Assembly (NCBI GenBank): GCA_036562265.1
Contig: DATCKS010000488.1
Location: 1 to 5,802, forward strand
DNA: 5,802 bases
Direction of reading: 5' to 3'
Source: DASVDK01 sp036562265 [NCBI: Thermodesulfobacteriota bacterium]
GTDB lineage: Bacteria; DASVDK01
Below, one piece after another: positions 449 to 5,802 of the stretch. The notes below the pieces were generated by a model. That model was not told the DNA's origin. It saw only the letters and a program-made list of their open reading frames with translations, and searched no databases. The position numbers and the translations under genes were made by a program. Position 1 is the stretch's first letter, and each line of letters starts with the position of its first letter.

Positions 449-502
449 GGGGGTCAGGCCCCGACACCTGCTCGGGTTGGAAAATGGAAAGGCCTGACCC
501 CC
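449..502. repeat. Long-loop inverted repeat (12-bp arms)
   Basis: GGGGGTCAGGCC at 449-460 is the perfect reverse complement of GGCCTGACCCCC at 491-502, with a 30-base loop. It begins nine bases after the methyltransferase remnant's stop codon. The right arm is the end of the first tandem repeat unit, so the structure looks like two facing ends of one repeat family. In RNA it could fold as a strong hairpin and limit read-through towards the transporter operon. There is no U-tract after it, so it is not a canonical Rho-independent terminator. Confidence 0.6.
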
Positions 503-526
503 TGGAAAATGGAAAGGCCTGACCCC
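478..526 (+). repeat. Two tandem copies of a 24-base unit (period 25)
   Basis: The unit starts TGGAAAATGGAAAGGCCT and ends GACCCC. Copy 1 is 478-501, one C separates them, and copy 2 is 503-526; the two are identical over 24 bases. The A-rich half of the unit stands out against the GC-rich surroundings. The first 18 bases recur inverted at 124-141. From memory, very similar short units are scattered between genes in several GC-rich bacterial lineages, sometimes near IS200-like (Y1/REP-associated) transposases. I cannot verify that here. Confidence 0.8.
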
Positions 527-1852: not shown

Positions 1853-3703
1853 GTGGGGTCCTACGTCGTCCAGTTCCTGAACGGACTGGCCACCGCCTCC
1901 TCGCTCTTCCTGGTGGCCGCCGGTCTCTCGATCATCTTCGGCGTCACCCGCATCGTCAACTTCGCGCACGGCGCCTTCTACATGCTCGGCGCCTACGTCG
2001 CCGTGTCCCTCGTGCCGCACACGGGCGGCGGCGCCGTCGGGTTCTGGACCGCCGTGCTCGCGGCGGCGCTCGTCGTGGGGGCGCTCGGCGTCGTCATGGA
2101 GCGGCTCCTCCTGCGCCGCGTCTACAGGGCCCCCGAGCTGTTCCAGCTCCTCGCGACGTTCGGGGTGGTCCTGGTCGTGCAGGACGCCGTGCTCCTCCTC
2201 TTCGGCCCCGAGGAGCGGCTCGGCCCGAGGGCGCCCGGCCTCGAGGGCGCGGTGTCGGTGCTCGGGCGCGCCTTCCCCGCCTACAGCCTCTTTCTCATCG
2301 TCCTCGGGTTCGCCGTCGCGGCCGCGCTCGCGTTCCTCTTCCGGCGGACGCGGTGGGGCGTCCTCGTCCGGGCGGCGACCGAGGACCGCGAGACGGTGGC
2401 GGCGCTCGGCGTGAACGAGGCGTGGCTCTTCACGAGCGTGGTGGCGCTCGGCACGGCGCTCGCCGGCCTGGGGGGCGCGCTGCAACTGCCGCGCGAGCCG
2501 GTCCACCCCGCGATGGACGTGCAGGTCATCGCCGAGGCGTTCGTCGTCGTGGTGGTGGGCGGCCTCGGGAGCCTCTGGGGGGCCTACCTCGCCTCGATCC
2601 TGATCGGCGAGCTGCACGCCTTCGGCATCCTGGTCTTCCCCGAGATCACGCTCGTCCTGGTCTTCCTCGTCATGGCGGTCGTGCTCGTCGTTCGGCCCTC
2701 CGGGCTCCTCGGGCGTCCGGAAACGGCGGCGCCGGGCCGCGCCGCGGCGCTCGCCGCGCCGCTCCTCATGCCGCCGTCCCGGCGAACGCTCGCGGTCGAG
2801 GTCGGTCTCGCCGCCCTCCTCGCGGCCGCACCGCTCGCGCTCGACGCCTACGCCCTCGGCGTCCTCTCGGAGGTCCTCGTCTACGCGCTCTTCGCGGCGA
2901 GCCTCCACCTCCTCATGGGGCCAGGCGGGCTCGTCTCCTTCGGCCACGCCGCCTACTTCGGCCTCGGTGCCTACGGCGCGGCGCTGACGGCCACGCGGCT
3001 CGGCGTGCCGATGCCGGTCGCGCTGGTCGCGGGGGTCACCCTGGCCTTCGCGGGCGCGCTCCTCTTCGGCCGATTCGCGGTCGGCCTCGGCGGCGTCTAC
3101 CTGGCGATGCTCTCCCTCGCCTTCGCCCAGATCGCCTACGCCGTCGCCTTCCAGTGGGTCCCGGTCACCGGCGGCGACAACGGGATCCTCGGCGTCTGGC
3201 CCCCCGGCTGGGTCGCCACGCCGGCCGGCTTCTACTACGTGGCGCTGGCGCTCTGCGGCGGGGCCGTCCTCTTCTTCCGGCGGGTCGTCTTCGCGCCGTT
3301 CGGCTACGCGCTCCGGGCGGCGCGGGACGCCGCCGCCCGTGCCGAGGCGAGCGGCATCGACGTCCGCCGCCAGCGGGCGCTCGCCTTCGCCCTGGCCGGC
3401 GCGGGCGCCGGGCTCGCCGGCGCGCTGTACGCGTTCCTCAAGGGGAGCGTCTTCCCGGAGTCGCTCGGCATCGCCACCTCCCTCGACGCCCTCGTCATGG
3501 TGCTCCTGGGCGGCGTCCACACGGTGGCCGGGCCGGTCGTGGGGGCGGCGGTCTACAAGACGCTCCAGGTGATCCTCGCGACCTACACCGACTACTGGCG
3601 CCTCGTCGTCGGCGCGACGCTCGTGGCGCTCGTGGTCGCCTTCCCGCAGGGGCTGGTCGGCTTCGCCGTCGGCCGGCTGCGCGCAGGCAAGGCTCGGCCG
3701 TGA
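1853..3703 (+). CDS. Fused LivH-LivM branched-chain amino acid ABC permease
   Basis: This is a single 616-residue inner-membrane protein that supplies both transmembrane halves of the importer, normally two proteins of about 290-330 residues each. The LivH-like half is residues 1-288: the GLSIIFGVTRIVNFAHGAFYMLGAY segment at 24-48, the cytoplasmic coupling loop at about 164-190 (RRTRWGVLVRAATEDRE onward), and VVVVGGLGSLWGA at 232-244. A short Ala/Pro/Arg-rich linker (about 289-311) leads to the LivM-like half. That half shows GLVSFGHAAYFGLGAYGAAL at 359-378, VTGGDNGILGV at 438-448, its coupling loop FGYALRAARDAAARAEASGI at 483-502, and VMVLLGGVHTVAGPVVGA at 548-565. Each half is mostly hydrophobic helices. 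The GTG start at 1853 lies 28 bases after the binding-protein stop and lacks a good Shine-Dalgarno sequence. The next in-frame ATG (1982) would remove the conserved HGAFYM region. M306 (ATG 2768-2770) may be the relic start of a once separate livM. The stop overlaps the livG GTG start by four bases. Confidence 0.93.
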   Translation: MGSYVVQFLNGLATASSLFLVAAGLSIIFGVTRIVNFAHGAFYMLGAYVAVSLVPHTGGGAVGFWTAVLAAALVVGALGVVMERLLLRRVYRAPELFQLLATFGVVLVVQDAVLLLFGPEERLGPRAPGLEGAVSVLGRAFPAYSLFLIVLGFAVAAALAFLFRRTRWGVLVRAATEDRETVAALGVNEAWLFTSVVALGTALAGLGGALQLPREPVHPAMDVQVIAEAFVVVVVGGLGSLWGAYLASILIGELHAFGILVFPEITLVLVFLVMAVVLVVRPSGLLGRPETAAPGRAAALAAPLLMPPSRRTLAVEVGLAALLAAAPLALDAYALGVLSEVLVYALFAASLHLLMGPGGLVSFGHAAYFGLGAYGAALTATRLGVPMPVALVAGVTLAFAGALLFGRFAVGLGGVYLAMLSLAFAQIAYAVAFQWVPVTGGDNGILGVWPPGWVATPAGFYYVALALCGGAVLFFRRVVFAPFGYALRAARDAAARAEASGIDVRRQRALAFALAGAGAGLAGALYAFLKGSVFPESLGIATSLDALVMVLLGGVHTVAGPVVGAAVYKTLQVILATYTDYWRLVVGATLVALVVAFPQGLVGFAVGRLRAGKARP

Positions 3704-4596
3704 GCGATCCGGCGAACAGCAGCCGCGAGCCGTTGCCGGAGGCGCGGCGGGAGCCGCGCCGTGAGGCGAGCGGCCACCGGTCGGTTGGCGCGCCGCAGGC
3801 GCGCCGAGGAGCGGAGGCCCGGCTTGGCCGGGCCGGAGCGGAAGCCGGCCGCGAGCCGTTGATGGAAGGTCGCGGGCTCGCGAAGCGGTTCGGCGGCGTC
3901 GAGGCGGTGCGCGGCGTCGACCTCGCGGTCCGCCGCGGCGAGGTCGCCGCCCTGATCGGCCCCAACGGCGCCGGCAAGACGACCTGCTTCAACCTCCTCA
4001 CGGGGCAGCTCCGGCCGGACGCCGGCCGGGTGCGGCTCCGCGGCCGCGACGTGACCGGCAGGCCGCCGCACGACCTCGCGCGGCTCGGCGTCGGGCGCAC
4101 CTTCCAGGTCACGACGGCCTTCGCCTCGATGACCGTCCGCGAGAACGTGCAGGTCGCCTGCCTGGCGAGGCACCGCCGGCTCGCCGGCCTGGTGAGGCCG
4201 GCCGCCGGGTGCTTCGTCGCCGAGGCCGACGCGCTCCTCGAGCGGGTCGGGATGGCGGACCAGGCCGACCGCGCGTGCGGCGTCCTCGCCTACGGCGACC
4301 TCAAGCGGGTCGAACTGGCGGTGGCGCTGGCGCACGAACCGGACCTGCTCCTCATGGACGAGCCGACGGCGGGGCTCGCGCCGCCCGAGCGGCACGCGCT
4401 CATGACGCTGGTGAGTTCCCTCGTCGCCGACCACGGGCTCACGGTGCTCTTCACGGAGCACGACATGGACGTCGTCTTCGGTCACGCCGCGCGCGTGCTC
4501 GTCATGCACCGGGGCGAGATCATCGCCGACGGCCCGCCCGACGTCGTGCGGGCCGATCCCCGCGTGCAGGCCGTCTACCTCGGGGGCGGGACGTGA
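3700..4596 (+). CDS. LivG ATPase of the Liv-type ABC importer, with an N-terminal in-frame repeat insertion
   Basis: This cytoplasmic ATPase pairs with LivF to drive transport. The ABC domain, numbered from M55 (ATG 3862) as residue 1, has the A-loop/beta start MEGRGLAKRFGG, Walker A GPNGAGKTT (33-41), Q-loop Q82 in GRTFQ, the family-type signature LAYGDLKR (142-149), Walker B LLLMDEP (162-168), and H-loop H200 in FTEHDMD. It also has the long LivG-specific segment between Q-loop and signature. From ATG 3862 the protein is 244 residues, a usual LivG size. From GTG 3700 it is 298. I prefer 3700 because its GTGA overlap with the permease stop copies the livG/livF junction. Also, VSDPANSSREPL followed directly by MEGRGL would be a normal LivG start once the 42-codon repeat segment is ignored. 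The insertion is Arg/Ala/Gly-rich. Translation from 3862 cannot be excluded, though no good Shine-Dalgarno sequence precedes it. Confidence 0.9.
   Translation: MSDPANSSREPLPEARREPRREASGHRSVGAPQARRGAEARLGRAGAEAGREPLMEGRGLAKRFGGVEAVRGVDLAVRRGEVAALIGPNGAGKTTCFNLLTGQLRPDAGRVRLRGRDVTGRPPHDLARLGVGRTFQVTTAFASMTVRENVQVACLARHRRLAGLVRPAAGCFVAEADALLERVGMADQADRACGVLAYGDLKRVELAVALAHEPDLLLMDEPTAGLAPPERHALMTLVSSLVADHGLTVLFTEHDMDVVFGHAARVLVMHRGEIIADGPPDVVRADPRVQAVYLGGGT
3722..3861 (+). repeat. 126-bp in-frame hairpin-rich insertion flanked by 14-bp direct repeats
   Basis: GCCGCGAGCCGTTG occurs at 3722-3735 and again at 3848-3861, exactly 126 bases (42 codons) apart, both copies in the livG frame and both encoding REPL. 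Between them lie three compact hairpins. The first has arms GGCGCGGC 3741-3748 and GCCGCGCC 3753-3760, loop GGGA. The second has arms GGCGCGCC 3787-3794 and 3798-3805, loop GCA. The third has arms GGCCCGGC 3816-3823 and GCCGGGCC 3827-3834, loop TTG, and is flanked by GGAGCGGA at 3808-3815 and 3835-3842. An alternative stem pairs GGCCGG 3831-3836 with CCGGCC 3845-3850. The pattern resembles a small palindromic element inserted in frame, as known for Rickettsia palindromic elements; that analogy is inference. A local duplication followed by divergence is the main alternative. Confidence 0.7.
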
Positions 4597-5303
4597 CGAA
4601 GGCGCTCGTCCTCGAGGGGGTCGACGCCTGGTACGGCGCGGCCCAGGTCCTCTTCGGGCTGTCGCTGCGCGTCGCGCCCGGCGAGGTGGTGGCGCTCCTC
4701 GGTCGCAACGGCGCGGGCAAGACGACGACGCTCAGGGCGATCATGGGCCTCGTGCCGAGGCGGCGCGGCCGCATCGAGTACGGCGGCGTCGATCTCACGG
4801 GGCTGCCGACGCACCGGATCGCCCGGCTCGGGATCGGCTACGTCCCCGAGGACCGCCGCATCCTCGCCACCCTCACCGTCCGCGAGAACCTCGAGGTCGG
4901 CCGCCAGCCGCCTCGTCCCGGCGCGCCGGTCTGGTCGGTGTCCCGGCTGTTCGACCTCTTCCCGAGCCTCGCATCGATGGCCGACCGGTCGGCCGGCGGG
5001 ATGAGCGGCGGCGAGCAGCAGATGCTGGCCATCGCCCGGACCCTCATGGGCAACCCGTCGCTCCTGCTCCTCGACGAGCCGTCCGAGGGGCTCGCGCCGC
5101 TGGTCGTCGAGGAGCTGGCACGGACGCTCTCGAAGCTGGCCGGCGAGGGCCTCTCGGTGCTCCTCGCCGAGCAGAACGTTCACTTCGCCCGCCGGCTCGC
5201 CGGCCGCGCGGCGATCGTCGAGAAGGGTCGCGTCCAGGTGGAGGGGACCATGGAGGCGATCGTGGCGGACGAGGGGCTGCGCCGGCGGTACCTGGCGGTG
5301 TGA
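4593..5303 (+). CDS. LivF ATPase of the Liv-type ABC importer
   Basis: This is the second cytoplasmic ATPase of the importer, the partner of LivG. It has 236 residues from the GTG at 4593, which overlaps the livG stop in GTGA; the protein begins VTKALVLEGVDAWYGAAQVL, the normal LivF opening. Walker A is GRNGAGKTT (37-45). The Q-loop region reads YVPEDRR (83-89), with Glu at the Q position as is common in LivF. The signature is MSGGEQQ (137-143). Walker B is LLLLDEPSEGL (157-167). The H-loop position is occupied by Q194 in AEQN, typical of LivF and not a defect. The C-terminus ends RRRYLAV, matching the family's usual YLG/YLA-type end. The sequence looks complete and functional. Expression is probably coupled to livG. 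The closest alternative, another HAAT ATPase such as UrtE, has the same fold; ligand identity cannot be settled from this gene. Confidence 0.93.
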   Translation: MTKALVLEGVDAWYGAAQVLFGLSLRVAPGEVVALLGRNGAGKTTTLRAIMGLVPRRRGRIEYGGVDLTGLPTHRIARLGIGYVPEDRRILATLTVRENLEVGRQPPRPGAPVWSVSRLFDLFPSLASMADRSAGGMSGGEQQMLAIARTLMGNPSLLLLDEPSEGLAPLVVEELARTLSKLAGEGLSVLLAEQNVHFARRLAGRAAIVEKGRVQVEGTMEAIVADEGLRRRYLAV

Positions 5304-5467: not shown

Positions 5468-5802
5468 ATGGAACCGGACCGGATCGCGTATCTCCCGATT
5501 GTCGATCGACCCTCGCTGAAGTGGCCCGGTGGCAAACGCTTGGCGCTCTGGGTCGTGCCCAACATCGAACACTACGAGTATCTCCCCCCGGCCAATCCGA
5601 TTCGTGATCCCTATCCACGCACGCCGCACCCGGATGTCCTGAGCTATGGCGCCAAGGATTACGGCAACCGGGTCGGGCTCTGGCGCCTCTTCGAGGTCAT
5701 GGACCGTCACGGGATCCGGTGCACGGTCTCCCTGAACATCGCCGCATTCGAGCACTACCCGGAGATCTTCGAGGCGTGCGAGCGCCGGGGCTGGGACTAC
5801 AT
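5468..5802 (+). CDS. Polysaccharide deacetylase family protein (PuuE/allantoinase-like branch), 3'-truncated by the window
   Basis: The frame opens at ATG 5468 and stays open to the window edge, giving 111 complete codons and two extra bases. The next upstream in-frame triplet of note is a TAA at 5408, with no other usual start codon between. GAGAAG at 5453-5458 is a possible Shine-Dalgarno sequence. The protein starts MEPDRIAYLPIVDRPSLKWP, then LALWVVPNIEHYEYLPP (about 26-42), RTPHPDVLSYGAKDYGNRVG (about 51-70), LWRLFEVMDRHGIRCTVSLN (71-90), and HYPEIFEACERRGWDY near the edge. I recognise this as the N-terminal third of a roughly 290-310-residue NodB-fold family. Members include the metal-independent allantoinase PuuE and many uncharacterised proteins annotated as polysaccharide deacetylase. 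The downstream SHG-type motif and catalytic residues lie outside the window. There is no signal peptide, so it is probably cytoplasmic. A deacetylase acting on carbohydrate is not favoured; a C-N hydrolase acting on a small amide or ureide is a reasonable inference only. Confidence 0.85.
   Translation, partial: MEPDRIAYLPIVDRPSLKWPGGKRLALWVVPNIEHYEYLPPANPIRDPYPRTPHPDVLSYGAKDYGNRVGLWRLFEVMDRHGIRCTVSLNIAAFEHYPEIFEACERRGWDY

What the first reader, a model, noticed from the sequence alone, without database searches (positions are those of the whole stretch)
3722..3861. In-frame 42-codon palindromic insertion at the start of livG
A 14-base direct repeat (GCCGCGAGCCGTTG) flanks a segment such that the repeat period is 126 bases, exactly 42 codons, with no stop codon in the livG frame. 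Deleting one period joins VSDPANSSREPL to MEGRGLAKRFGG. That gives a 256-residue LivG starting at the GTGA overlap with the permease stop, just as livF starts relative to livG. The simplest reading is an insertion or duplication that kept the frame and is now translated as an Arg/Ala/Gly-rich N-terminal extension. Repeat elements that insert in frame into protein genes are established for Rickettsia (RPE); one in this GC-rich lineage would be notable.
Basis: partly seen in the sequence, partly recalled or inferred. Interest (0 to 1): 0.6.

Follow-up and report, generated by a model that had tools for sequence, protein, structure and literature searches.

The report
Hairpin-rich insertion at livG start
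A short DNA segment carrying three strong hairpins appears to have dropped into the first codons of an amino-acid transporter gene without breaking its reading frame, much like the small palindromic inserts known from Rickettsia genes, but only this one copy could be examined.

Summary
GCCGCGAGCCGTTG stands at 3722-3735 and 3848-3861 (period 126 bp, 42 codons), and the livG frame is open from GTG 3700. Between the copies lie three perfect 8-bp-stem hairpins; such a cluster was seen in 0 of 5,000 simulations and 0 times in 882,792 bp of related loci. Homologues support an insertion. In 73 of 78 relatives livG starts on the permease stop, with 5-53 nt from stop to core domain; here it is 158 nt, and 32 nt after removing one period, leaving a normal N-terminus (VSDPANSSREPL-MEGRGLAKRFGG). 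The added codons lack the operon's coding signature and fold with low confidence. Best reading: a small hairpin element, or a slippage-type event, entered codons 8-12 with a 14-bp duplication, and livG is still read from the overlapping GTG. Not shown: translation of the extension, mobility, other copies, alleles without it. No genome is held for this window and the best listed permease relatives were 63% identical. Main rival: livG now starts at ATG 3862 and the hairpins are an untranslated spacer. A single case resembling known in-frame palindromic inserts (RPE) and MIRU.

The parts
1853..3703 (+). fused LivH-LivM permease (GTG start assumed); its TGA stop (3701-3703) overlaps the livG GTG
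   Evidence: Pfam PF02653, two stretches; UrtB/UrtC/LivH/LivM models below their cut-offs; sequence
3700..3703 (+). GTGA start/stop overlap, inferred ancestral and probably present livG start
   Evidence: 73 of 78 relatives start livG on the permease stop; same GTGA at livG/livF
3700..3735 (+). inferred original livG codons 1-12 (VSDPANSSREPL)
   Evidence: joins directly to MEGRGLAKRFGG when one period is removed; resembles homologue N-termini such as MSAPLLEARGLAKAYGG in L062
3722..3735 (+). direct repeat copy 1, GCCGCGAGCCGTTG
3736..3847 (+). 112-bp inserted core between the repeats
   Evidence: no counterpart in L001-L080; junction excess length; codon-position G+C .93/.74/.83 over 3736-3861 against .80/.49/.97 for the LivG core
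3741..3760 (+). hairpin 1, 8-bp stem, loop of 4, -18.3 kcal/mol
3787..3805 (+). hairpin 2, 8-bp stem, loop of 3 (10 pairs with flanks), -18.4 kcal/mol for 3785-3807
3816..3834 (+). hairpin 3, 8-bp stem, loop of 3, -18.4 kcal/mol for 3813-3838
3848..3861 (+). direct repeat copy 2; supplies codons for REPL, the last two of which begin the predicted strand beta-1 (53-64)
3862..4596 (+). LivG ATPase core; ATG 3862 is the rival start
   Evidence: Pfam PF00005 and PF12399; best NCBIfam models, LivG and UrtD, from residues 52 and 57, below their cut-offs; sequence relative 1g6h

Best explanation
A 126-bp insertion (112 bp of new sequence plus a 14-bp duplication of the site) entered codons 8-12 of a livG gene whose GTG start overlaps the permease stop (GTGA). 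The insert carries three stable G+C-rich hairpins and looks like a small non-autonomous hairpin element, though a slippage or template-switch event could leave a similar trace. Its length is a multiple of three and its frame is open, so ribosomes coupled from the permease gene that start at GTG 3700 would read through into the unchanged ATPase domain. LivG would then carry a probably unstructured Arg/Ala/Gly/Glu-rich tail with 42 extra residues. The second repeat copy restores REPL next to the core, so strand beta-1 is intact. Shown: the repeat, the hairpins, the open frame, the excess length against homologues and the normal N-terminus after removing one period. Inferred: the direction of change, element-like origin, and translation of the extension.
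For: Junction length: 158 nt against 5-53 nt in the 73 relatives with an overlapping start, and 32 nt after removing 126; 73 of 78 relatives have the overlapping start. The 112-bp core has no counterpart in L001-L080. The N-terminus without one period looks like those of homologues. Triple hairpin cluster: 0 in 882,792 bp and 0 of 5000 simulations. Base composition by codon position is not that of the operon's genes. AlphaFold2: core blocks mostly above 90, residues 1-50 in blocks of 43-56, strand beta-1 at 53-64 includes P53 and L54. GTG 3700 has a Shine-Dalgarno match of -4.1 kcal/mol at 6 nt; ATG 3862 has -2.3 at 12 nt and TTG 3859 -3.5 at 15 nt; mean unpaired probability around the start is .45.32 and .26. 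ATG 3862 lies 158 nt past the permease stop; a review reports best coupling at -4 to +3 nt, reduced coupling up to about +40 nt, and loss at +89 nt in one tested system (PMC12548453, passages seen).
Against: No allele without the insert and no second copy was found, and neither could be sought in the source genome or its close relatives. The direct repeat is only weakly significant alone. Openness of the frame is expected about 80% of the time. The extension lacks coding signature, which also fits an untranslated spacer. The Shine-Dalgarno match at GTG 3700 is weaker than the median of 77 relatives (-6.4; quartiles -9.5 and -2.55), though within their middle half. The model draws a helix at 36-48, at low confidence, so the tail need not be wholly disordered. 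Relatives in the alignment are only 52-66% identical in LivG. An assembly error cannot be excluded without reads.
Confidence: 0.6

Rival explanations
1. The insertion is real but untranslated: livG now starts at ATG 3862 (or TTG 3859), and 3704-3861 is a 158-nt spacer whose hairpins act at most as a BIME/REP-like mRNA element between permease and ATPase genes.
For: Composition of the segment is not coding-like. The two best NCBIfam models begin at residues 52 and 57. In L049 (Variovorax beijingensis) the same junction has 139 nt from stop to core with a REP-like repeat (7 copies at up to 2 mismatches in that genome, this one included), and livG has its own ATG.
Against: ATG 3862 has only a weak Shine-Dalgarno match (-2.3, weaker than the upper quartile of relatives), is 158 nt from the stop, would cut two residues from the predicted strand beta-1 and would start at a nearly invariant Leu column. 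In the 73 overlapping-start relatives the start lies at least three codons earlier (from gaps of 5 nt or more). The GTGA start and frame are kept.
Confidence: 0.25
2. No insertion: this lineage's LivG has an old, lineage-specific low-complexity N-terminal extension, and the 14-bp repeat and hairpins are by-products of extreme G+C content.
For: The repeat is only weakly significant; no closely related allele is available.
Against: Hairpin cluster above expectation; codon-position composition unlike the four operon genes measured; removal of one period gives the homologous geometry.
Confidence: 0.1
3. Metagenome assembly or sequencing artefact at a hairpin-rich site.
For: No genome is held for the window, so it may be a metagenome record; strong hairpins are error-prone (general knowledge).
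Against: The segment is not a copy of other window sequence: its best match to the rest is 31.0 bits (E 7e-4), within the range of 30 control segments, 24.7-48.2, two of which overlap it. The frame is intact on both sides.
Confidence: 0.05

Closest known systems
Rickettsia palindromic elements (RPE; Ogata and colleagues) and the Wolbachia counterpart
   Same: Hairpin-forming short insert in frame in a protein gene. In-frame RPE insertion is described in PMC3733652 and PMC5656822 (passages seen).
   Different: RPEs are many-copy families (recalled); only one copy is known here. G+C-rich three-hairpin array, where RPE hosts are A+T-rich (recalled). A 14-bp direct repeat flanks it. The source lineage is unidentified.
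MIRU (mycobacterial interspersed repetitive units)
   Same: Insert at a start/stop overlap in an operon of a G+C-rich genome that is thought to keep translation of the downstream gene (PMC12548453, passage seen).
   Different: MIRUs insert at the start codon and bring a separate small ORF; here the insert is 22-36 bp inside livG and in the same frame. Many MIRU copies exist; one here.
REP/BIME elements in operon junctions (GTAG/CGTC super-families)
   Same: Short hairpins in an intercistronic junction; a REP-like repeat is seen in the same livHM-livG junction in L049. REPs inside coding regions are reported (PMC3733652, passage seen).
   Different: No GTAG, CTAC, CGTC or GACG in the insert; three unlike stems instead of one repeated palindrome; frame kept.

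Membership tests
RPE-like protein-coding palindromic element | insert lies in frame in a gene whose homologues lack it | tested here: met
   no counterpart in L001-L080, 78 of which have a livG match; frame open across 126 bp. Close homologues not available
RPE-like protein-coding palindromic element | insert can form hairpins | tested here: met
   three perfect 8-bp-stem hairpins, but not one overall palindrome
RPE-like protein-coding palindromic element | many copies in the genome | not testable with these tools
   window genome not held; no copy of the array seen in phages, plasmids or 100 Pseudomonadota genomes
RPE-like protein-coding palindromic element | actually translated | not testable with these tools
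   needs proteomics or ribosome profiling
RPE-like protein-coding palindromic element | belongs to Rickettsia/Wolbachia RPE sequence families | not tested
   RPE sequences were not fetched
GTAG/CGTC REP super-families | GTAG or CGTC tag at the palindrome | tested here: not met
   0 occurrences of the tags and their complements in 3722-3861
MIRU | inserted at the start codon, with its own ORF coupled to the gene at -4 nt | tested here: not met
   insert begins 22-36 bp after the first base of GTG and shares the livG frame
Rfam RNA families | match to a curated RNA family | tested here: not met
   three weak matches at E up to 1 elsewhere in the window, none at 3700-3870

The most novel reading that the evidence does not exclude
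The segment is one copy of an undescribed family of G+C-rich triple-hairpin elements in an uncultured lineage that insert with a 14-bp target duplication and are tolerated in frame inside genes: an RPE-like 'protein-coding palindrome' system outside Rickettsiales.
Probability: 0.2. Interest if true: 0.65.

Novelty: new variant of a known kind. Interest (0 to 1): 0.38.

Why it matters
If it is one of a family, it would give an independent, high-G+C case of short palindromic DNA spreading into protein genes without destroying them, and would suggest that coupled start/stop overlaps in operons are landing sites that select for lengths in multiples of three. The L049 comparison, where a REP-like repeat lies in the same junction and livG uses its own start codon, shows the other way out. 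As a single case it is mainly a caution for start-codon annotation.

Tried and rejected
Second copy of the insert: not found in phages (no match). In plasmids 4 weak matches at E 0.04; two were fetched and the alignment of one (L228) was seen, 76% over 66 bases. In 100 Pseudomonadota genomes 7 had matches at E up to 0.001, 8 places; at most 8 first-look candidates per genome were scored. Seven of the 8 places re-aligned locally (L234 did not pass my limit); they are isolated 24-39-base stretches, one with a single 7-bp-stem hairpin nearby, none with an array, so I treat them as chance although the best were an exact 24-mer and an 85% 39-mer. Against L001-L080 the 112-bp core gives only short matches no better than shuffled copies.

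Of the 104 loci examined, 3 had one hairpin within 60 bases of the motif and none had more. The permease had no relative in viral contigs and the flanking repeat no match there.

Taxonomy: the lineage was not identified. I guessed Rokubacteria/Methylomirabilota from recall and could not test it. The flanking repeat in its 24-base form is absent (up to 1 mismatch) from 398 Pseudomonadota genomes, and in its 23-base form (exact) from 19 genomes of my loci (one genome is in both sets).

Duplication of nearby window sequence as source of the insert: no more similar than control segments. Rfam, tRNA, promoter and terminator scans gave nothing at the site. Literature searches showed no description of this element in the listings seen, which held only the first 1-15 papers of each search; the original RPE paper that I asked for is not held, and RPE features beyond the passages cited are recalled.

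Biases: the start choice used for the LivG alignment and for the Shine-Dalgarno set takes the nearest ATG/GTG 2 to about 25 codons upstream of the core, so those calls cannot show long extensions in relatives; the junction count does not depend on it. Two of 80 loci (L050, L065) had no livG match and were dropped before the counts; of the 78, L038, L041, L044, L049 and L071 lack the overlap. The alignment display showed one row in two.

Full report
What is there. The window holds a branched-chain amino-acid type ABC transporter operon: livK 607-1824, a fused livH-livM permease 1853-3703, livG from GTG 3700 to 4596, and livF 4593-5303. The start of a gene with a weak allantoinase PuuE match follows at 5468. 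The permease stop and the livG GTG overlap as GTGA, and livG/livF do the same. The repeat GCCGCGAGCCGTTG stands at 3722-3735 and 3848-3861, 126 bases apart. Between the copies are three perfect 8-bp-stem hairpins at 3741-3760, 3787-3805 and 3816-3834, each near -18 kcal/mol as RNA.

Chance. The direct repeat alone is not strong evidence: 45 of 400 simulated windows and 71 of 2000 simulated 801-bp segments had one, as did 28 of 4394 real 200-bp windows of the related loci. A 42-codon open frame is expected in 80% of sequences of this composition. The hairpin cluster is unusual: none of 5000 order-1 simulations of the 158-bp segment had three such hairpins, and no cluster of three within 120 bp occurs in 882,792 bp of L001-L080, which hold 188 single ones. 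The 171-nt region folds with z = -3.17, 3 of 200 shuffles doing as well; the 112-bp core alone gives z = -2.27, 4 of 200.

Homologues. 78 had a livG match; L050 and L065 were dropped. In 73 of 78 the livG start overlaps the permease stop, and the distance from stop to the core residue aligned with window 3862 is 5-53 nt in these; the other five are L038, L041, L044, L071 and L049 (139 nt). The window has 158 nt, and removing one repeat period gives 32 nt. The N-terminus then reads VSDPANSSREPLMEGRGLAKRFGG, like MSAPLLEARGLAKAYGG in L062. The 112-bp core has no match of 56 bases or more in L001-L080 and no match better than shuffled copies give. This is the main reason to believe in an insertion of one period.

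The inserted codons. G+C at codon positions 1, 2 and 3 is .80/.49/.97 in the LivG core, with positions 2 and 3 nearly the same in the other three genes measured, but .93/.74/.83 in 3736-3861. The segment has therefore not evolved as a protein for long, or is not translated. AlphaFold2 on the 45-sequence alignment gives the core high confidence and residues 1-50 block means of 43-56, with a low-confidence helix at 36-48. Strand beta-1 runs 53-64, so the second copy of the repeat supplies P53 and L54 of that strand. The nearest solved relative by sequence is the branched-chain amino-acid ATPase 1g6h, aligned from residue 56.

Which start is used. GTG 3700 has a Shine-Dalgarno match of -4.1 kcal/mol at 6 nt, against a median of -6.4 for 77 relatives (quartiles -9.5 and -2.55). 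ATG 3862 has -2.3 at 12 nt and TTG 3859 -3.5 at 15 nt; the region around GTG 3700 is also the least paired of the three. A review says coupling is best at -4 to +3 nt and was lost at +89 nt in one system, and that MIRUs appear to insert at start codons so that their ORF is coupled at -4 nt (PMC12548453, passages only). These facts favour continued use of GTG 3700, with translation of the insert, but do not prove it.

An instructive comparison. In L049 (Variovorax beijingensis) the same junction has 139 nt from stop to core and holds CCCTCATCCCAACCCTCTCCC, present 7 times at up to 2 mismatches in that genome, this copy included (2 and 4 times in two other Variovorax genomes; reversed-pattern control 0), and livG there has its own ATG. 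So a REP-like repeat can lie in this junction, and the overlap can be lost when another start exists.

Other copies. None found in phages; 4 weak plasmid matches at E 0.04. In 100 Pseudomonadota genomes 7 had short matches, and the seven of eight places re-examined lacked the hairpin array. The source genome is not held, and I had no handle in its lineage, so the family question stays open.

Comparison with known kinds. In-frame palindromic inserts are known in Rickettsia, and REPs inside coding regions in several organisms (PMC3733652 and PMC5656822, passages only). The insert has none of the GTAG/CGTC tags, is not at the start codon itself as MIRUs are, and matches no Rfam family at the site. 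It works like an RPE insertion; membership in any family cannot be claimed from one copy.

Verdict.

Noticed in passing
window 478-526 and 125-141: Perfect tandem 25-bp repeat TGGAAAATGGAAAGGCCTGACCCCC (2 copies) with a 17-bp inverted copy at 125-141; its 24-base form is absent from 398 Pseudomonadota genomes at up to 1 mismatch. Looks like a REP-type repeat of the source lineage.
   Followed up: partly
window about 105-440: Open frame similar at DNA level (about 71-75%) to class I SAM-dependent methyltransferase genes on Rhizobium, Paracoccus and Leisingera plasmids; the match ends on its 5' side near the inverted repeat copy, so possibly a gene remnant.
   Followed up: partly
L049 about 6903-7032: REP-like repeat and inverted repeats in the livHM-livG junction of Variovorax beijingensis, with livG starting at its own ATG instead of on the permease stop.
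   Followed up: partly
window 5468-5802: Start of a gene with a weak match to allantoinase PuuE (E 3.4e-6, below its cut-off), cut off by the window end, next to the transporter operon.
   Followed up: no
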